Below are positions 19,977 to 56,484 of a stretch of 64,000 nt of DNA, in pieces. This DNA is from Amycolatopsis thermoflava N1165 (GTDB lineage: Bacteria; Actinomycetota; Actinomycetes; Mycobacteriales; Pseudonocardiaceae): NCBI RefSeq assembly GCF_000473265.1, contig NZ_KI421511.1:6651909-6715908 (forward strand), read 5' to 3'. Positions within the stretch are counted from its first letter, which is position 1, and each line of letters opens with the position of its first letter. The position numbers and the translations under genes were made by a program. Below the pieces are notes generated by a model. That model worked only from the letters and a program-made list of their open reading frames with translations. It was not told the DNA's origin and ran no database searches.

Positions 19977-21587
19977 ATGCCAGCCGTGCCGAGTTATGCG
20001 TCGGGTATCTCCGAGGTGCCCTTGCTGGGTGACACGATCGGTGACAACTTCGACCGGACCGTGGCCGCGTTCGGTGACCGGGACGCGCTGGTGGAGTTCG
20101 CGTCGGGCCGCCGGTGGACCTACCGCGAGCTGGCCGCCGAGGTCGACGCGCTGGCCGCCGGGCTGACCGGGCGCGGCATCGGCAAGGGCGACCGGGTGGG
20201 GATCTGGTCGCCGAACTGTGCCGAGTGGACGTTCCTGCAGTACGCGACGGCGAAGATCGGCGTGGTGCTGGTCAACATCAACCCCGCCTACCGGTCGCAC
20301 GAGCTGGAGTTCGTGCTGAACCAGGCCGGGGTGAAGATGCTGGTGGCGGCGCGGTCGTTCAAGACGTCCGACTACGCGGCGATGATCGAAGAGGTCCGGC
20401 CGCGGTGCGCCGCGCTGGAGCAGGTGGTGCTGCTGGGCTCGGACGAGTGGTCGGAGTTGATGGAGTCCGGGCGGGGCAAGGCGTTGCCGGAGGTCGGCCT
20501 GTCCGCCGACGACCCGATCAACATCCAGTACACCTCGGGCACGACGGGCTTCCCGAAGGGCGCGACCCTGTCGCACCACAACATCCTCAACAACGGCTTC
20601 TTCGTCGGCGAGCTGTGCCACTACACGGAAGCGGACCGGGTGTGCATCCCGGTGCCGTTCTACCACTGCTTCGGAATGGTGATGGGCAACCTCGCGGCCA
20701 CCACGCACGGCGCGTGCATGGTGATCCCGGCGCCGTCGTTCGAGCCGAAGGCCACCCTGCAGGCGGTGGAGGCGGAGCGGTGCACGTCCCTGTACGGGGT
20801 GCCCACGATGTTCATCGCGGAGCTGGCCGAGCCCGGCTTCGAGGACTACGACCTGAGCAGCCTGCGAACCGGCATCATGGCGGGCTCGCCCTGCCCGGTC
20901 GAGGTGATGAAGCAGGTCATCGAGCGGATGGGCATGGCCGAGGTGTCCATTTGTTACGGCATGACGGAAACCTCGCCGGTGTCGACGCAGACCCGGTCGG
21001 ACGACTCGATCGAGCGGCGGGTGTCGACGGTCGGACGGGTCGGGCCGCACCTGGAGGTCAAGATCGTCGACCCGGAGACCGGGCTGACGGTGCCGCGCGG
21101 CGAGCCGGGTGAGCTGTGCACCCGGGGCTACTCGGTGATGCTCGGATACTGGGACCAGCCGGACAAGACGGCCGAGGTGATCGACAAGGCGAGGTGGATG
21201 CACACCGGCGACCTCGGCGTGATGGACGACGAGGGCTACATCCAGATCACCGGGCGGATCAAGGACATGGTCATCCGCGGCGGCGAGAACATCTACCCCC
21301 GGGAGATCGAGGAGTTCCTCTACACGCACCCGGATGTGCTGGACGCGCAGGTGATCGGCGTCCCGGACCAGCGCTACGGCGAAGAGCTGATGGCGTGGAT
21401 CCGGATGCGCGAGGGAGCCCAGCCACTGACGGCGGAGTCGCTGCGGGAGTTCTGCACGGGAAAGCTGGCGCACTACAAGATCCCGAAGTACGTGCACATC
21501 GTGGACGAATTCCCGATGACCGTGACCGGAAAGGTACGAAAGGTCGAGATGCGGGAAAAGGCACTGAAGATCCTCGACCTGGAATAG
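19977..21587 (+). CDS. Fatty-acyl-CoA synthetase / AMP-dependent ligase
   Basis: 536 aa. Activates a carboxylic acid as acyl-AMP then transfers it to CoA. The P-loop [17 protein letters not shown] lies near residue 183, [15 protein letters not shown] near 327, [20 protein letters not shown] near 408, [18 protein letters not shown] near 428, and the catalytic Lys in [10 protein letters not shown] at the C terminus. GAGGAGG lies 4 nt before the ATG. The sequence resembles medium-chain ACSF2/FadD35-like enzymes; chain length is not readable. Its upstream neighbour is divergent, and downstream lie two structured repeat elements rather than a gene. Confidence 0.93.
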
Positions 21588-21596
21588 GAAAGGAAA

Positions 21597-21803
21597 CCGC
21601 CACCCGGCAACGAAGGCGGCCCGACAAACCCACCCCAAAACCGCCACCCGGCAACGAAAGCAAGCCGACCAACCCAACCAGACCTCCCCCGCCCCCGATC
21701 CACAGCCGATCTTTAGTCGCCGATCAGGGTTGTCAAGGCACGCTTTCCCGCCTTGACAACCCTGCTCGGCGACTGAAACACAATCAGGCATCGGGGGCGG
21801 GGG
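21597..21803. repeat. Structured element 1: long two-part stem-loop with conserved loop
   Basis: Two direct copies of CCGCCACCCGGCAACGAA (21597-21614, 21641-21658) precede a long hairpin. Outer stem: 21686-21699 with 21790-21803, 14 perfect pairs. Inner stem: 21715-21739 with 21750-21774, 24 of 25 pairs. Apical loop: ACGCTTTCCC (21740-21749). The same loop and apical 8 bp recur in element 2 (25274-25388) with different outer stems. It lies just after the acyl-CoA synthetase stop and may terminate its transcript, but has no U-tract. Confidence 0.75.
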
Positions 21804-21870
21804 TGGTCGGAAGGTGACCATTCGAGCGCCGTGAGGCGCACCGCCCGAAGGGCGGAAAAAGATCAAAAGA

Positions 21871-22103
21871 GTCCTCGCCGGACGGGCAGGCTCCGGGATG
21901 ACCAGGGGTTGGGTGCCTCGTCCCACCTCGGGTGGGTGGTCGCCGGGTGGTCATCCCGTCGCCTTCCGGTTTGTGCATATCACCTTGAGCCAGGGCCGCA
22001 AGGTTGGCATGGTCGGCTGCCGGTTGGCGGCCTGGGTTGCGGCCCTGGCTCAAGGTGATCGTTCCGGTGTCAGGCGACGGGATGACCACCCAGCTACCTT
22101 GGG
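21871..22103. repeat. Nested-hairpin repeat, copy A
   Basis: About 230 bp, nearly identical to copy B at 46103-46322. Outer stem 21945-21964 with 22072-22091 (20 perfect pairs, containing GGTGGTCATCCCGTCG); inner stem 21979-22001 with 22037-22059 (23 perfect pairs, containing CACCTTGAGCCAGGGCC). Copy A has an 11-bp insertion relative to B before the outer stem. It lies between the convergent acyl-CoA synthetase and R2lox genes. No credible reading frame. Confidence 0.85.
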
Positions 22104-22132
22104 TTGTTCGAAAGACTTGCGCTGCGCGCTTT

Positions 22133-23095
22133 TTAGCTCACTGCGTTCGCGAGTGCCTTGGCGTCTTCTTCGCCGAACGTCTCTTCCAGTTGCTCGGGGG
22201 AGTAGTCCAGGTCGATCTGGCCCACCGGGACGCCTCGTGCCGATTCGATGGCGCCCAGGCGGCGTTGTGCCCGGTCGGCCGCGTACTCGATGAACTCCTG
22301 CGGGTCGTTGTCGAACGGGCGCGGCTCTTCGAACTGGTCCTGCACCCATTGGATCATCCCGAGCGCGTGCGGCAGCAGTTCGCCCATGCGCTGCTGGACG
22401 GCGTCCCACAGGGAGTCGTCGGCGGCGATGTGCCGTCGGCAGGTGAAGGTGCCCCATGCCATGTGGCGACGTTCGTCGTCGCCGATGTGTTTCACCAGTT
22501 GCTGCATGCCGGGCAGGATGCCGCGCGTGGTGCAGACCTTTTGCCACGCGTAGTAGCCCGTCAGCGCCAGGCTGCCTTCGATCACGTGGTTGTAGGTGAC
22601 GCTCGCGCGGACCTGGTTCAGCGGGCTCGGGTCGTGCTCCAGTACGGCGAGCGACTCCGGCAGCTCCTCGTAGAACAGCTTGCGGTAGTGCGGGTTCTCA
22701 CTCACGTACGAGGTCAGGTCCTCCGTCAGCCCCACCGCGTCCATCCACCGGCGGAAGACCTCCGTGTGTTTGGCCTCCTCGAAGCAGAACTGGGTCAGGT
22801 ACATCTCGTCGCCGAACCGGCCCTCGGCGGCCATCGCCTTCATGAACGGCTGGATGTCCTCCGTCACCGCCTCCTCGCCGGCGATGAACTGCGCGCACAG
22901 GTACGTTGACGACCGGCGCTCCTCGTCGGTGAGGGTCTGCCAGTCCTCGGCGTCCTTGCTGAAGTCGATGTCGGCCGGGTTCCAGAACTTGCGGTTGCCC
23001 TTGACGAACAGGCGCAACGGGAACGAATCCCAGTTCAGTCCGCCCCGGCGCAGCGAGGCGAATCCGGTGCGGTGCGCGGGCAGGGTTCCAGTCAT
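22133..23095 (-). CDS. R2-like ligand-binding oxidase (R2lox)
   Basis: 320 aa, ribonucleotide-reductase R2 fold. All six metal ligands known from M. tuberculosis R2lox (Rv0233) align with a constant offset of 6: Glu74, Glu107, His110, Glu173, Glu208, His211. The Val and Tyr that form the ether cross-link in that protein also align (Val77, Tyr168). It is therefore an R2lox with a probable Mn/Fe site rather than a class I reductase subunit, and no nrdA or nrdI is nearby. R2lox proteins bind a long-chain fatty acid and are thought to oxidise hydrophobic substrates. A TetR gene lies 6 nt upstream in the same operon, the arrangement of Rv0232-Rv0233. Confidence 0.95.
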
Positions 23096-23101
23096 GATCG
23101 C

Positions 23102-23707
23102 TCACTCCATTGTGGACGAATAGTGGGTGATGGCCGGTGCGAGCGCGGCGCAGACCAGGTCGGCCGCCTCGGCCGCGGAATGGGTCGGCAGCACCAGATG
23201 GCTCAACGAGAGCCGTACCGCGGTCTCGGCGAGCAGGTTCGCGGCGTCGGTGCTGAGGGTGGGCAGGAACTGGCGGTAGTGCGTCGCGGCGGTGTCCATC
23301 GCCGCGGACAGCACCGGCTCACCCCGGGTGGTGAGCAGCGGCAGCAGGTCCTCGCCCTGGGGCGTGCCCAGCGCGGAGGCGACCAGGCGGTTCTCCCTGG
23401 CGTGCTCGATCGTGTAGGTGACCGCGCCCCGGATGCCGGTCAGCAGATCGGGCGCCGACGCGAACCGCTGGTGAATGCCGTCCAGGAACTCGCCCGTGGT
23501 GCGCAGGACGACCGCCTGCACGAGCGCGTTCTTGTTGCCGAACTCGTTGTAGACCGTCTGACGGCTGACCCCGGCCGCCGACGCCACGTCCGCCATCCGC
23601 AGGGCCGCGTAGCCCCGCGCCGCCAGGATGTCGGCCGCCGCGTCGAGCAGGGTCTCCCGGAGCGAAGTCCTGGTCCGCTCCACGAACGAGTCGGTGATGT
23701 CAGTCAC
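23102..23707 (-). CDS. TetR-family regulator of the R2lox operon
   Basis: 201 aa. HTH at residues ~17-62: LRETLLDAAADILAARGYAA, MADVASAAGVSRQTVYNEFG. The GTG at 23707 is used. R2lox follows after 6 nt, so the repressor and the oxidase form one transcript, and the inverted repeats just upstream would give autoregulation. The ligand is unknown; a fatty acid or lipid is plausible given the R2lox ligand. Confidence 0.9.
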   Translation of the reverse strand: MTDITDSFVERTRTSLRETLLDAAADILAARGYAALRMADVASAAGVSRQTVYNEFGNKNALVQAVVLRTTGEFLDGIHQRFASAPDLLTGIRGAVTYTIEHARENRLVASALGTPQGEDLLPLLTTRGEPVLSAAMDTAATHYRQFLPTLSTDAANLLAETAVRLSLSHLVLPTHSAAEAADLVCAALAPAITHYSSTME

Positions 23708-23715
23708 AGAAACAG

Positions 23716-23765
23716 CTTGACACAGGATGTCTCGGTGTCAAGAAGGTTGACCCGAAAGGCGTCAA
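23716..23765. promoter_or_regulatory. Two inverted repeats upstream of TetR-R2lox
   Basis: CTTGACAC (23716-23723) with GTGTCAAG (23735-23742), 11-nt spacer; then TTGAC (23747-23751) with GTCAA (23761-23765), 9-nt spacer. Shared TTGAC half-sites suggest two binding sites for the same TetR dimer. TTGACA may also be the -35 box. Confidence 0.5.
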
Positions 23766-23812
23766 TGTAAAGCGGAGGTGAGACGCCCCCCGGATCTGTC
23801 GGTGGGTCCGGC

Positions 23813-23818
23813 TACCGT
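23813..23818 (+). promoter_or_regulatory. -10 hexamer TACCGT, leaderless start
   Basis: TACCGT lies 7 nt before the GTG at 23826. Confidence 0.55.
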
Positions 23819-23825
23819 GGCTGTC

Positions 23826-24458
23826 GTGGGAACAGCCGTCGGATTCGACCTGGACATGACGCTCATCGATCCACGGCCGGGCATGGTCGCGGTGATGAAC
23901 GCGCTCGGCGTGGAGGCGGGCCTGCCGCTGGACGGCGAGCACTTCGCCGCGAACCTGGGCCCGCCGCTGGACATGGTGCTGCGTGACTTCGGCGCGCCCG
24001 AGGAGCGCATCGGGGCGCTCGTCGACCGGTTCCGCCAGCTGTACCCCGAGATCGTGATCCCGGAGACCGTCGCCCTGCCCGGCGCGCACGAGGCGCTCGC
24101 CGCGGTGCACGAGGCCGGTGGCCGCACGGTCGTCGTCACCGGCAAGTACGGCCCGAACGCGGCGCTGCACGTGAAGGCGCTCGGCCTGGCCGTCGACGTG
24201 CTCGTGGGCGAGCTGTGGTCGGACGGCAAGGCGGTGGCCCTGCGCGAGCACGGCGCGACGATCTACGCCGGCGATCACCTGGGGGACGTGCGTGGCGCGC
24301 TGGCGGCCGGCGCGGTGCCGGTGGGTGTGACGACGGGCCCCTGCAGCCGCGCGGAGTTACTGGAGGCGGGGGCCGAGGTGGTCTTCGAGAGCCTGGCGGA
24401 GTTCCCGGCCTGGCTCAGCCGGCAGCCGCTTTCCGGTGCTCGCGAACCAGTGAGATGA
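23826..24458 (+). CDS. HAD-superfamily hydrolase
   Basis: 210 aa. Motif I VGFDLDMTLIDPRPG, motif II VVVTGKYGPNA, motif III Lys near SDGKAVAL, motif IV IYAGDHLGDVRGALAAG. The helical cap between motifs I and II fits subclass I (phosphoglycolate phosphatase-like). GTG start fixed by the hexamer 7 nt upstream; it gives MGTAVGFDLDMT, the standard distance to motif I. Substrate unknown. The last 44 bp overlap the convergent membrane-protein gene. Confidence 0.88.
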   Translation: MGTAVGFDLDMTLIDPRPGMVAVMNALGVEAGLPLDGEHFAANLGPPLDMVLRDFGAPEERIGALVDRFRQLYPEIVIPETVALPGAHEALAAVHEAGGRTVVVTGKYGPNAALHVKALGLAVDVLVGELWSDGKAVALREHGATIYAGDHLGDVRGALAAGAVPVGVTTGPCSRAELLEAGAEVVFESLAEFPAWLSRQPLSGAREPVR

Positions 24459-24645
24459 GCGACAGGGCGATGCCGAGGGGAGTGGCCACCCCGGCGACGG
24501 CGCTCAGCCACACCGGGAGGTCCCGAAGGCCGAACGCGAACAGGACGAACACGGCCAGCACGGCCAGCACGCCGACGGCGAACACACCGATCCCGAGCCG
24601 CATGAGGAACGGCTTGCGCGGGGAAGTCTTGGCCGGAGTATCCAT
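24415..24645 (-). CDS. Small two-helix membrane protein (76 aa)
   Basis: Basic N terminus (MDTPAKTSPRKPFLMRLG), two hydrophobic segments (VFAVGVLAVLAVFVLFAFGL and LSAVAGVATPLGIALSLISL) and a charged tail (VREHRKAAAG). No known domain. Start supported by a TAACCT hexamer 6 nt upstream (24652-24657). It is divergent from the cold-shock gene. Confidence 0.72.
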   Translation of the reverse strand: MDTPAKTSPRKPFLMRLGIGVFAVGVLAVLAVFVLFAFGLRDLPVWLSAVAGVATPLGIALSLISLVREHRKAAAG

Positions 24646-24651
24646 GGCACA

Positions 24652-24657
24652 AGGTTA
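24652..24657 (-). promoter_or_regulatory. -10 hexamer TAACCT, leaderless start
   Basis: TAACCT lies 6 nt before the ATG at 24645 (minus strand). Confidence 0.5.
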
Positions 24658-24808
24658 GAACCCATATCTTCTTCACCGGAGGGCGCATACCGGGATAGGC
24701 TGGTGGTTACGCGTCCTGGGTACGCCCAGGGCGCGTTCGTCGTGCAGGGCGGTCACGTGCCGCCGGTACGCGAGATGACTTACTCAGAGCGAAGGAACGG
24801 TGAGGGCA

Positions 24809-25195
24809 GTGCCGACCGGCAAGGTCAAGTGGTACGACGCGGAGAAGGGGTTCGGTTTCGTCACCCAGGACGGCGGCCAGGACGTCTACATCCGCAAGAC
24901 CGCGCTCCCCCAAGGGGTCGAGGCACTCAAGGCAGGCCAGCGGCTGGAGTTCGGCGTCGCCGACGGCCGTCGTGGTCCGCAGGCCCTGTCCGTTCGGCTG
25001 ATCGACAGCCTGCCCTCGGTCGCCGAAGCGCGCCGCCGCCCGGCGGAGGAGCTGCACGGCCTGATCGAGGACATGATCAAGCTGCTCGAGATGAAGGTGC
25101 AGCCGGACCTGCGCCGCGGCCGCTACCCGGACCGCAAGAACACCAAGCGGATCGCCGAAGTGATGCGCGCGGTGGCCCGGGACCTCGACCCGTAA
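24809..25195 (+). CDS. Long cold-shock protein CspB-type
   Basis: 128 aa: a cold-shock domain (residues 1-65) plus a ~60-residue basic C-terminal extension. RNP1 is KGFGFV and RNP2 is DVYIRKTAL. The extension ([40 protein letters not shown]) matches the C terminus of M. tuberculosis CspB (Rv0871) as I recall it, which is longer than classical ~67-aa CspA. Binds RNA or ssDNA. GTG at 24809 gives the conserved start [14 protein letters not shown]; the GTG at 24800 is an alternative with GAAGGA upstream. Its end is followed by structured element 2. Confidence 0.9.
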
Positions 25196-25211
25196 GTCAG
25201 GTCACACCGGA

Positions 25212-25388
25212 GCCGCCAGCCGCCACGCAACCGCACCCGGCAACGCAAGCTGCTGACCTCACGAGCCACCCCTCTCCCGCAACCCGATCCCCAGCCAAAT
25301 CGGTTGCCGAGCCACCGGGTCAAGGCACGCTTTCCCGCCTTGACGCGGTGTCTCGGCAACCGAACACCTGAAAGATCGGGTTCGGGAG
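25212..25388. repeat. Structured element 2: long two-part stem-loop with conserved loop
   Basis: A CACCCGGCAACGCAAGC motif (25234-25250) precedes the hairpin, matching the direct repeat of element 1. Outer stem: 25274-25288 with 25375-25388, one bulge. Inner stem: 25300-25326 with 25337-25363, 25 of 27 pairs. Loop ACGCTTTCCC (25327-25336) and the apical GTCAAGGC/GCCTTGAC are identical to element 1; the remaining stem sequence differs but stays paired. It lies between convergent cspB and DUF2771 genes. Confidence 0.75.
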
Positions 25389-25448
25389 GGACTCTTTCAA
25401 TCGGGGCGTAGCGAAGCGAAGCCGGCGATCGAGAAACCCGCGTAGCGG

Positions 25449-25949
25449 CTACGAACCCGGCTCAACCTGCAAAGACCAGAAAGCCCGCGCCACCAACTGC
25501 GGATTCCCGTTCTCATCCAGTAACGGATTCCCGGCCTGATCAGCCGCATAGGCAGCTCCGAGCTGCTGCACCTCCACAACGACCAGCTGGTCGTCCGGCG
25601 CGGCTCCGGTAGCGGTGTAGGCCAGCTTGTCCCCGGGCGAGAAGAACTGCTGCTTCACCGGCTGCAGTTCGCCCTTGGCGTTGGCGTACTGGACGTTCAC
25701 CAGCCAGGGCGTGTCGCCGATCTCGGACGGCACGGAGATCTGCACCGGCTTGCCGGGCCGCACCTTGAGTGTCACGGCGGCGTCCGGGTTTTCCGAGCAC
25801 GACTTCAACAGCGCGTCGCAGTTGACGATCGGCTCGGCGTTGACCGTGTGACCGTCACCGAAGAACGTGACCTCGGGCGGGCCGACCGTGGCGGAGCACC
25901 CGGTCAGCGCCAGCACACCGGCCGACAGCAACAGCAAAGTTCGCCGCAT
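25449..25949 (-). CDS. DUF2771 lipoprotein
   Basis: 166 aa. Lipoprotein signal MRRTLLLLSAGVLALTGC with the lipobox Cys at 18, then an extracellular beta-rich domain (VTFFGDGHTVNAEPIVNCDA, two further Cys that could form a disulfide: NCDALLKSC). I place it in DUF2771 from the sequence style and position after the MFS gene, as in Rv0875c-Rv0876c. Function unknown. ATG at 25949 is 7 nt after TAGGGT. The MFS stop lies 22 nt upstream. Confidence 0.82.
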   Translation of the reverse strand: MRRTLLLLSAGVLALTGCSATVGPPEVTFFGDGHTVNAEPIVNCDALLKSCSENPDAAVTLKVRPGKPVQISVPSEIGDTPWLVNVQYANAKGELQPVKQQFFSPGDKLAYTATGAAPDDQLVVVEVQQLGAAYAADQAGNPLLDENGNPQLVARAFWSLQVEPGS

Positions 25950-54484: not shown

Positions 54485-54781
54485 GTGCGTCCAGGAGAGA
54501 TCATCCCGGCGGAGTCACCCGTGCAGCTGAACCCCGGTCGCCCACGCGTGCGGTTGCGGGTGAGCAACACCGGTGACCGGCCGGTGCAGGTCGGCTCGCA
54601 CTACCACTTCGCGGTGACGAACCCGGCGCTCGAATTCGACCGGGCGGCCGCCCGCGGTCACCGCCTGGACATCCCCGCCGGCACCTCCGTCCGCTTCGAG
54701 CCGGGCGTCGAGCGCGAGGTCGACCTGGTGCCGCTGGCCGGCCGCCGGGTGGTGCCGGGCCTGCGAAAGGACAGCGAGTGA
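54485..54781 (+). CDS. ureB: Urease beta subunit
   Basis: 98 aa. [40 protein letters not shown] and [15 protein letters not shown] are the conserved blocks. GTG start 10 nt after ureA with AGGAGCA upstream; its end overlaps the ureC GTG by 4 nt. Confidence 0.97.
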
Positions 54782-56484
54782 CCAGCATCGACCGCGAGCG
54801 CTACGCCGAGCTGTTCGGGCCCACGACCGGCGACCGGATCCGGCTGGCCGACACCGATCTGCTCATCGAGGTCACCGAGGACCGCAGCATGGGCGCCGGC
54901 TCCGGCGACGAGGTGATCTTCGGCGGCGGCAAGGTGATCCGCGAGTCGATGGGCCAGGGCATGGCGACCCGCGCCGAGGGCGCGCCGGACCTGGTCATCA
55001 CCGGCGCCGTCGTGCTCGACCACTGGGGCGTGGTCAAGGCCGACGTCGGCGTGCGCGACGGCCGGATCGTCGGCATCGGCAAGGCGGGCAACCCGGACAC
55101 CATGGACGGCGTCGACCCGGCCCTGGTGATCGGGCCGGCCACGGAGGTCCTGTCCGGCAACGGGAAGATCCTCACCGCGGGCGGCGTCGACTGCCACGTC
55201 CACTTCATCTGCCCGCAGCTCGTCGACACCGCACTGGCCTCCGGCCTGACCACACTCGTCGGCGGCGGCACCGGCCCGTCGGAGGGCACGAAGGCCACCA
55301 CGGTCACGCCGGGACCGTGGAACCTGGCCCGGATGCTGCAGGCGATGGACCGCCAGCCGGTCAACGTCCTGTTGCTGGGCAAGGGAAACACGGTCCGGCC
55401 TGAAGCGCTGCGCGAGCAGCTCGCGGCCGGCGCCGGCGGGTTCAAACTGCACGAGGACTGGGGCACCACGCCGGCCGCGATCGACGCGTGCCTGTCGGTG
55501 GCCGACGAATCCGGCGTGCAGGTGGCGATCCACACCGACACGCTCAACGAGGCCGGGTTCCTGGAGTCCACTGTGGACGCGGTGGCCGGCCGGTCGATCA
55601 ACGCCTACCACACCGAGGGCGCGGGCGGCGGGCACGCGCCGGACATCATCAAGGTCGCCGGGCTGCCGAACTTCCTGCCGTCGTCGACCAACCCGACCCG
55701 CCCGCACACCGTCAACACCCTCGACGAGCACCTCGACATGCTCATGGTGTGCCACCACCTCAACCCGTCGGTGCCGGAGGATCTGGCCTTCGCCGAGAGC
55801 CGGATCCGCCCGAGCACGATCGCGGCCGAGGACGTGCTGCACGACCTCGGCGCCATCTCGATGATGAGCTCGGATTCGCAGGCGATGGGCCGGATCGGCG
55901 AGGTGATCATCCGCACCTGGCAGACCGCGCACGTGATGAAACGCCGCCGCGGCGCGCTGCCCGGCGACGGCGGGGCGGACAACCTGCGGGCCCGTCGTTA
56001 TGTCGCCAAGTACACGATCAACCCGGCCATCGCGCACGGGATGGACGGCGAGATCGGCTCGGTCGAGGTCGGCAAGCTCGCCGACCTGGTGCTGTGGGAG
56101 CCCAAGTTCTTCGGCGTCAAACCGCACGTGGTGCTGAAGGGCGGGTTCGTCGCGTGGGCCGCGATGGGCGACGCGAACGCGTCCATCCCGACCCCGCAGC
56201 CGGTGCTCGCGCGGCCGATGTTCGGCGCCGCGCCGTCCGTGGCCGCGGCGAGCAGTCTGTACTTCGTCGCGCCGGAAGCGCTCGACACCGGCCTTCCGGT
56301 CACCCGGCCGCTGGTGCCGGTGCGCAATGTGCGCCGCGTGACGAAGGCCGACATGGTGCTCAACGACGCGCTGCCGGACATCCAGGTCGACGCGGACAGC
56401 TTCGCGGTGCACGTGGACGGCGAGCTGATCGAGCCGCAGCCGGTCGCCGAACTGCCCATGGCCCAGCGGTACTTCCTGTTCTGA
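54778..56484 (+). CDS. ureC: Urease alpha (catalytic) subunit
   Basis: 568 aa, full length. Nickel-site residues visible: the His pair in [13 protein letters not shown], the carbamylated Lys in [33 protein letters not shown] and the catalytic lid His in [19 protein letters not shown]; the last Asp is in [14 protein letters not shown]. Hydrolyses urea to ammonia and carbamate. GTG start overlapping ureB; its TGA overlaps the ureF ATG. Confidence 0.98.

What the first reader, a model, noticed from the sequence alone, without database searches (positions are those of the whole stretch)
21686..25388. Two long stem-loops with an identical apical loop and covarying stems
At 21686-21803 and 25274-25388 the apical GTCAAGGC / ACGCTTTCCC / GCCTTGAC is identical. 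The rest of the inner stem (24/25 and 25/27 paired) and the outer stem (14 and ~14 pairs) differ in sequence but remain complementary. Both are preceded by a CACCCGGCAACG(A/C)AAGC motif and both follow a plus-strand gene end. Compensatory change points to selection on the folded RNA or ssDNA with a fixed loop as the recognised part: a non-coding RNA class, a loop-binding protein target or a REPIN-like mobile hairpin. I know of no named family with this loop.
Basis: partly seen in the sequence, partly recalled or inferred. Interest (0 to 1): 0.85.

Follow-up and report, generated by a model that had tools for sequence, protein, structure and literature searches.

The report
Dispersed mirror-stem hairpin repeats
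Dozens of copies of a long hairpin with a fixed tip, a fixed base and a freely changing but self-matching middle are scattered between genes in some relatives of Amycolatopsis, which makes them a natural test of how RNA-like hairpins are copied, corrected and lost.

Summary
The two hairpins belong to a dispersed family: 66 copies of the 26-nt apex in this genome, present in 12 of 19 congeners and 27 of 249 family genomes; no Rfam, phage, plasmid or viral-contig match. Stems covary: 94.4% of cells paired, 19 of 25 pairs changed on both sides, 0 of 500 shuffles as high. G·T wobbles outnumber A·C mismatches 56-97 to 7-8 events, so one defined strand folds. In an Actinokineospora genome, 32 of 33 copies examined (51 counted) have a perfect 17-bp stem whose 11 variable positions differ from copy to copy while the surroundings hardly vary. 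Changes there are always on both arms, mostly transversion-type, and one congener copy has its apex inverted in place: signatures of replication template switching. Copies lie mostly between convergent genes and avoid divergent gaps and the terminus third. Best reading: REP-like foldback repeats acting as single-stranded hairpins, probably RNA, at gene 3' ends. Recognising factor, transcription and mobiliser are not shown.

The parts
21601..21661 (+). two 5' motif units CACCCGGCAACGAAGGC / CACCCGGCAACGAAAGC in front of copy 1
   Evidence: similar units, in places as tandem arrays, precede most copies as read; Tandem Repeats Finder reports no array at 21560-22140
21681..21808 (+). copy 1 (type A): long hairpin, outer stem, asymmetric internal loop, inner stem
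   Evidence: fold; covariance model R1 hit 21712-21777 + 78.9 bits against 50.5 on the - strand
21732..21757 (+). fixed apex of copy 1: 8-bp stem, 10-nt loop ACGCTTTCCC
21809..21945 (+). type A 3' module, shared by other type A copies
   Evidence: flank listing (listing partly cut)
21946..22091 (+). second long hairpin (H2) that follows type A copies; a separate repeat family
25234..25250 (+). 5' motif unit CACCCGGCAACGCAAGC in front of copy 2
25272..25390 (+). copy 2 (type B): long hairpin
   Evidence: fold; R1 hit 25299-25364 + 80 bits against 45.9 on the - strand
25319..25344 (+). fixed apex of copy 2
25391..25451 (+). type B 3' module (GGGCGTAGCGAAGCGAAGCC ... CGCGTAGCGG)
   Evidence: shared by type B copies; its own fold is no better than shuffles (z 0.01)

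Best explanation
A family of dispersed foldback repeats that works as a single-stranded hairpin of one defined strand, most likely in RNA read past gene 3' ends. Anatomy: an A/C-rich 5' segment with GGCAACG units, an outer stem, an asymmetric internal loop with conserved letters, a 17-bp spacer helix whose sequence is free, and a fixed apex (8 bp, 9-10 nt loop around CTTTCC). The conserved apex and internal loop would be the two contact points of a trans-acting factor, held a fixed distance apart by the spacer helix. The spacer drifts fast because replication template switching copies one arm onto the other, so both arms change at once; the same process can invert the apex, and slippage between short repeats at the stem base deletes the hairpin. 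Shown: the family, its anatomy, covariation, the strand asymmetry, both-arm changes without intermediates, one in-place apex inversion, recurrent hairpin loss, position between convergent genes. Inferred: transcription, the factor, any effect on transcript ends, how copies reached new sites.
For: 66 copies; 94.4% of cells paired, 19 of 25 pairs changed on both sides, covariation 0.695 against 0.187 shuffled. G·T/T·G 158 instances against A·C/C·A 9, or 56-97 against 7-8 when similar stems are merged: a DNA palindrome acting on both strands, or arm copying alone, gives no reason for this. Context: 42 of 66 convergent against 27 of 123 background gaps of 100 bp or more (p 3e-8), 1 of 66 divergent against 38 of 123 (p 3e-7). 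A/C-rich, G/T-poor 5' side: A .276 C .385 G .25 T .085 against .142 .35 .357 .152 after 168 control ORFs; G094 C .54 G .153. No replichore preference of the folding strand, 38 to 28, p 0.27, which argues against lagging-strand ssDNA use. Template switching: G094 nearest stem pairs (up to 3 differences) show 32 transversion-type and 17 transition-type pair changes and 0 non-Watson-Crick cells; apex inverted at 4826816 in G009. G-C plus T-A pairs make 76% of variable columns in G094, the bias that PMC8794818 derives for intrastrand switching (passages).
Against: No transcript data. Orientation relative to tandem neighbours is weak: 16 sense against 7 antisense in this genome, p 0.09; 18:10, 7:5 and 1:3 in the other sets (flanks often cut). 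Gene calls are my own codon heuristic. The strand asymmetry comes from the Amycolatopsis-type copies; G094 has 1 G·T and 0 A·C and says nothing on strand. The G-C/T-A bias is 0.49-0.58 outside G094 and could follow the local A/C-rich strand. In several loci the gene's own terminator already lies in front of the element (by eye), so a terminator role is not needed there. Patchy copy numbers fit a mobile element as well.
Confidence: 0.5

Rival explanations
1. A mobile single-stranded DNA hairpin: a REPIN-like non-autonomous element recognised by its apex and moved by an unidentified transposase or recombinase acting in trans; position at gene ends only reflects where insertions are tolerated.
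For: A defined unit of roughly 130-240 bp occurs at many unrelated sites; numbers jump between relatives (0 to 63 among 19 congeners); 51 places in one Actinokineospora against 1 carrier of 15 genomes of its genus g45; head-to-head pairs (places); an extra inverted copy in G009 beside 5201570 and a site where the whole element is absent, 5190192.
Against: No Y1/RAYT gene in the 12 carrier congeners; no phage, plasmid or viral-contig copies; no replichore bias; missing from the terminus third, where new insertions should be best tolerated; no target duplication recognised by eye; most G009 differences are hairpin deletions, not empty sites.
Confidence: 0.3
2. A functionless palindrome family: arms are kept matched only by template switching and copies by recombination among themselves; covariation reflects mutation, not selection.
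For: Both-arm changes without intermediates, in-place inversion and repeated deletion; subfamily loops replaced at orthologous sites.
Against: G·T far above A·C; apex and internal-loop letters held nearly constant in G094 while adjacent stem positions approach saturation; loop orientation relative to the outer arms reversed in one clear case among 190 distinct copies.
Confidence: 0.12
3. Ordinary bidirectional transcription terminators of convergent genes that happen to be similar.
For: Convergent gaps, long G+C-rich hairpins.
Against: Fixed 26-nt apex across genera; no T-run directly after either window hairpin; genuine-looking terminators lie upstream in several loci (by eye). The consensus scan allows loops of 3-8 only and so could not test these hairpins.
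Confidence: 0.05
4. A dsDNA binding site for a chromosome-organising protein, avoided near the terminus as recalled for Noc or SlmA sites.
For: No copy in 0.254-3.102 Mb, a gap centred at 1.68 Mb with the point opposite dnaA at 1.53 Mb (P about 4e-10 if uniform); G009 shows a like gap, 2.26-5.05 Mb of 7.24 Mb with dnaA at its start.
Against: A duplex site needs no long covarying stem and no strand-specific wobble; several congeners have no copy; accessory gene content near the terminus explains the gap more simply.
Confidence: 0.03

Closest known systems
REP / REPIN elements (GTAG and CGTC families; PMC3733652, passages seen)
   Same: Dispersed intergenic palindromes, often in pairs, downstream of genes, plausibly transcribed; CGTC REPs also lack a dedicated transposase according to that paper.
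   Different: REPs are 20-40 bp with a GTAG or CGTC end tag; here the unit is above 110 nt with a fixed apex, an internal loop and a free-sequence helix; no RAYT in the genome.
Template-switch-maintained RNA stems (PMC8794818: abstract and passages; PMC8604942: abstract)
   Same: Arm homogenisation, multi-pair compensations, loop or spacer inversion, excess of G-C and U-A pairs.
   Different: Those studies treat rRNA, microRNA and yeast genes; here one genome offers dozens of sister hairpins with a constant frame and near-saturated mirrored stems.
BOX, RUP and other modular intergenic repeats or MITEs (recalled, not tested)
   Same: Modular make-up, tens of copies, foldback potential.
   Different: No shared sequence looked for; defining termini and transposase not established here.
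Structured RNA families of Rfam 15
   Same: Covarying secondary structure on one strand.
   Different: No family reaches its gathering score at either place; best weak hits at copy 1 are microRNA models far below threshold.

Membership tests
REP / REPIN | RAYT (Y1, PF01797) gene in the genome | tested here: not met
   1 of 19 congeners has a match (G014), and that one has 0 apex copies
REP / REPIN | short (20-40 bp) palindrome with GTAG or CGTC end tag | tested here: not met
   unit above 110 nt; GTAG occurs only inside the type B 3' module
REP / REPIN | dispersed, intergenic, enriched downstream of genes | tested here: met
MITE | terminal inverted repeats with target-site duplication | tested here: inconclusive
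   outer arms form terminal inverted repeats; no duplication recognised by eye; boundaries uncertain
Intrinsic terminator | G+C-rich hairpin followed by a T-run | tested here: not met
   no T-run after either hairpin; cannot score 10-nt loops
Intrinsic terminator | transcripts end there | not testable with these tools
   no RNA data
Known Rfam family | match at gathering score | tested here: not met
   (whole window): the single hit is at 54942-55231, elsewhere
Template-switching hairpin | both arms change together without unpaired intermediates | tested here: met
   G094: 49 pair changes, 0 non-Watson-Crick cells; not so in the Amycolatopsis sets, where non-WC cells are common
Template-switching hairpin | in-place inversion of the loop | tested here: met
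   one case, G009 orthologue of 4826816; one clear case among 190 copies
Integron attC or IS-end hairpins | recombinase gene beside the hairpins | not tested
   only one lead followed, G472, and it failed

The most novel reading that the evidence does not exclude
In Actinokineospora the hairpins are individually coded tags: a process writes a new sequence of about 11 positions, with its exact mirror, into each copy between a constant base and a constant tip, so that each copy carries its own double-stranded address or guide which a factor reads through the fixed apex and internal loop.
Probability: 0.07. Interest if true: 0.9.

Novelty: new variant of a known kind. Interest (0 to 1): 0.62.

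Why it matters
If the reading holds, one genome supplies dozens of parallel replicas of the same hairpin whose stem is near saturation while everything around it stays put. That makes an open question directly testable: how paired stems change on both sides without passing through unpaired states. It also warns that strong covariation, the usual proof of functional RNA, can be produced largely by arm copying; the wobble asymmetry (G·T against A·C) is the extra test that separates the two. The family is absent from Rfam and no paper with its apex letters was found in the held library. If the fixed tip is a docking site, it would lead to an RNA- or hairpin-binding factor in antibiotic-producing actinomycetes.

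Tried and rejected
1) RAYT as mover: rejected for this genus; other transposase classes were not searched. 2) The G472 hit outside the family looked at first like the end of a DDE transposase plus AAA ATPase transposon. Reading the 3.8-kb contig, the element's inverted repeats seem to lie near 317 and 3458, about 190 bp short of the hairpin; so it is not a transposon end. Contamination or transfer is not excluded. 3) A wider actinomycete family: in the genus of G506 the relaxed pattern hits 11 of 199 genomes, about the level of the reversed control (8 genomes); only the G506 place resembles the family. The G688 hits have an unrelated 43-nt loop region. 4) Stem letters taken from the neighbourhood: 4 matches of the variable 11-mer in local flanks against 2.6 in shuffles; no support. 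5) Lagging-strand preference: none. 6) Loop complement as an anti-Shine-Dalgarno or rRNA target: considered, not tested, too short to decide. 7) Deep positional conservation: 24 of 26 collinear own/other locus pairs keep a copy, but 'other' loci were picked for carrying the apex, and the four pairs with flanks at about 73-82% identity are roughly what chance coincidence could give (my estimate, not computed); not used as evidence. 8) Early gene-context counts were superseded: one search used a cruder caller (34/23/7/2), merged near-identical copies. 9) RNAalifold on the full-length alignment A1 found only 14 pairs because MAFFT gapped the stems; the shorter A2 was used instead. 10) Two Bacillota MAG contigs with the bare 26-mer (R1 37.1 and 36.4 bits over the apex only): about two chance hits of the 19 fixed letters are expected in 257 Gb by my estimate, so left open.
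Full report
OBSERVATION. The two hairpins are present at the stated places and share an exact 26-nt apex. Their stems differ and stay paired. Copy 1 lies between an AMP-binding enzyme gene ending at 21587 and a convergent ribonucleotide reductase small-chain gene (22133-23095, minus). Copy 2 lies between a cold-shock-domain gene ending at 25195 and a convergent DUF2771 gene (25449-25949, minus).

FAMILY AND RANGE. Genome-wide, up to 3 mismatches, there are 66 copies (43 exact; reversed control 0). Within the genus 12 of 19 genomes match a degenerate core, with 0 to 63 copies; within the family 27 of 249 genomes, 6 of 46 genera. Loci of A. tucumanensis are the nearest named relatives seen, about 94-98% identical over aligned stretches. 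A covariance model (R1) hits 12 of 200 genomes of the order at E 0.001; 11 are of the same family, the twelfth (G264) is weak at 6e-4 (candidates capped at 26 per genome and strict filters). At class level 4 of 296 match at 1e-5, three of them outside the family: one full hairpin on a 3.8-kb contig (G472), one relative with loop ACTCCTTCCC (G506), and a different hairpin (G688). No match in viral contigs, plasmids or phages.

ANATOMY. Copies in this genome fall into two main types that differ in arms and 3' modules and share the apex. Folds of five relatives from other genomes show the same plan: outer stem, asymmetric internal loop, long inner helix, apical loop of 9-10 nt; z-scores -6.4 to -11.2. 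With the loop left free, hairpins GTCAAGG-N6-20-CCTTGAC number 63 (G000), 56 (G007), 51 (G094), 20 (G154) and 19 (G027); the listing is capped, but all 50 G094 places shown and 19 of the 20 G154 places carry ACGCTTTCCC, ACTCTTTCCC, ATCTTTCCC or near variants. Loop constancy in my alignments is otherwise partly imposed by the search pattern.

COVARIATION AND STRAND. On 39 representatives (of 43; two cut by insertion sequences, one inverted and one decayed copy left out) 94.4% of cells pair, 19 of 25 pairs change on both sides, covariation score 0.695 against 0.187 in shuffles and 0.08-0.18 when slid. Over 148 distinct stems 16.9 of 24 positions pair, against 9.7 when arms of different copies are combined; 7% of such swaps reach the real mean, as expected among same-type copies. 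Wobbles are one-sided: G·T/T·G 158 cells, A·C/C·A 9; after merging similar stems 56-97 against 7-8 events. G·G also exceeds C·C (75 to 22, mostly position 1). A cruciform or mere arm copying predicts equality, so a single strand, the one drawn, is what matters. This evidence comes from Amycolatopsis-type copies.

MIRRORED HYPERVARIABLE STEMS. 32 of 33 have 17 of 17 Watson-Crick pairs; the exception has one extra base in the left arm. Positions 2-11 and 13 vary (0.8-1.8 bits), the rest of the stem and the flanking unpaired letters hardly at all. Nearest stem pairs with up to 3 differences give 32 transversion-type and 17 transition-type pair changes and no unpaired cell; up to 4 differences, 38 and 21. 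Transversion-type changes cannot pass through G·U. In the Amycolatopsis sets non-Watson-Crick cells are common among nearest pairs, so two regimes exist. PMC8794818 (abstract and passages) and PMC8604942 (abstract) describe template switching that homogenises arms and inverts loops; the former derives an excess of G-C and U-A pairs, seen here as 76% of variable columns in G094 but only 49-58% in the other sets.

TURNOVER. Comparing 400 kb of this chromosome with the collinear, roughly 97% identical stretch of G009, 12 hairpins have these G009 states: 5 intact in outline, of which one has the apex inverted in place (4826816) and one has new matching letters in both arms plus decay (4942132); 5 with the hairpin cut out and the rest of the element left (4840941, 4993807, 5043196, 5070855, 5201570), in at least three with one copy of a short direct repeat at the junction; 1 larger deletion (4979034); 1 element absent (5190192). 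At site 1 over 20 loci of 19 genomes the apex is present in 5 (G000 twice, G006, G007, G017), cut out in G009, cut off by a contig end in G015, and not seen in the other 13, one of which (L258) could not be anchored.

CONTEXT. With my codon-based gene calls, 42 of 66 copies are convergent, 16 tandem sense, 7 tandem antisense, 1 divergent; background gaps of at least 100 bp in 400 kb are 27 convergent, 58 tandem, 38 divergent. Sense bias in tandem gaps is not significant (p 0.09). The folding strand shows no replichore preference (38 to 28). The largest copy-free gap, 2.85 Mb, is centred at 1.68 Mb, near the point opposite dnaA at 5.86 Mb. The 5' side is A/C-rich and T-poor compared with other gene ends, the kind of unstructured tract that Rho prefers (recalled); a Rho link is untested.

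MECHANISM. I commit to a single-stranded, probably transcribed hairpin with two fixed contact points and a free spacer, maintained by selection on folding plus template switching (0.5). A DNA-level mobile hairpin is the main rival (0.3). The novel reading, individually coded tags, rests on the G094 set alone.

LITERATURE. Searches on Amycolatopsis or Pseudonocardiaceae with palindrome, stem-loop, miniature inverted-repeat and REP terms returned 1, 0, 1 and 3 papers, all off topic by their titles and abstract starts; the apex letters returned none. Only open-licence PubMed Central text was searched.

Noticed in passing
window 21946-22091: A second long hairpin family (arms ATCACCTTGAGCCAGGGCCGCAA) follows copy 1: 38+40 arm matches in this genome, 10 of 19 congeners, also in G012 that has no apex copy and in G005 that has one.
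   Followed up: partly
G000:C1:5119121-5120007 and window 20700-21586: The 3' 887 bp of the AMP-binding enzyme gene occur twice at 100% identity 1.55 Mb apart, with the hairpin element behind both.
   Followed up: partly
window 54942-55231 (-): Rfam 5_ureB_sRNA hit (66.9 bits) lies antisense to an ORF that reads as urease alpha subunit, 54778-56484; probably coding similarity, not an RNA.
   Followed up: partly
L063, L045, L087: Insertion sequences sit in or beside copies of the element: by eye IS3-like (L063), IS5-like end (L045), IS256-like ORF (L087).
   Followed up: no
L096 6109-6142; L107 304-335: Two Bacillota MAG contigs hold the bare 26-mer apex without the long stem, in similar contexts; L096 has an IS3-like ORF next to it.
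   Followed up: partly
L107 1663-3012: An ORF that reads like an IscB-type RNA-guided nuclease (name recalled, not searched).
   Followed up: no
L371, L373, L374 (G688): Another foldback repeat with GTCAAGG/CCTTGAC arms but a 43-nt different loop region, three places.
   Followed up: no
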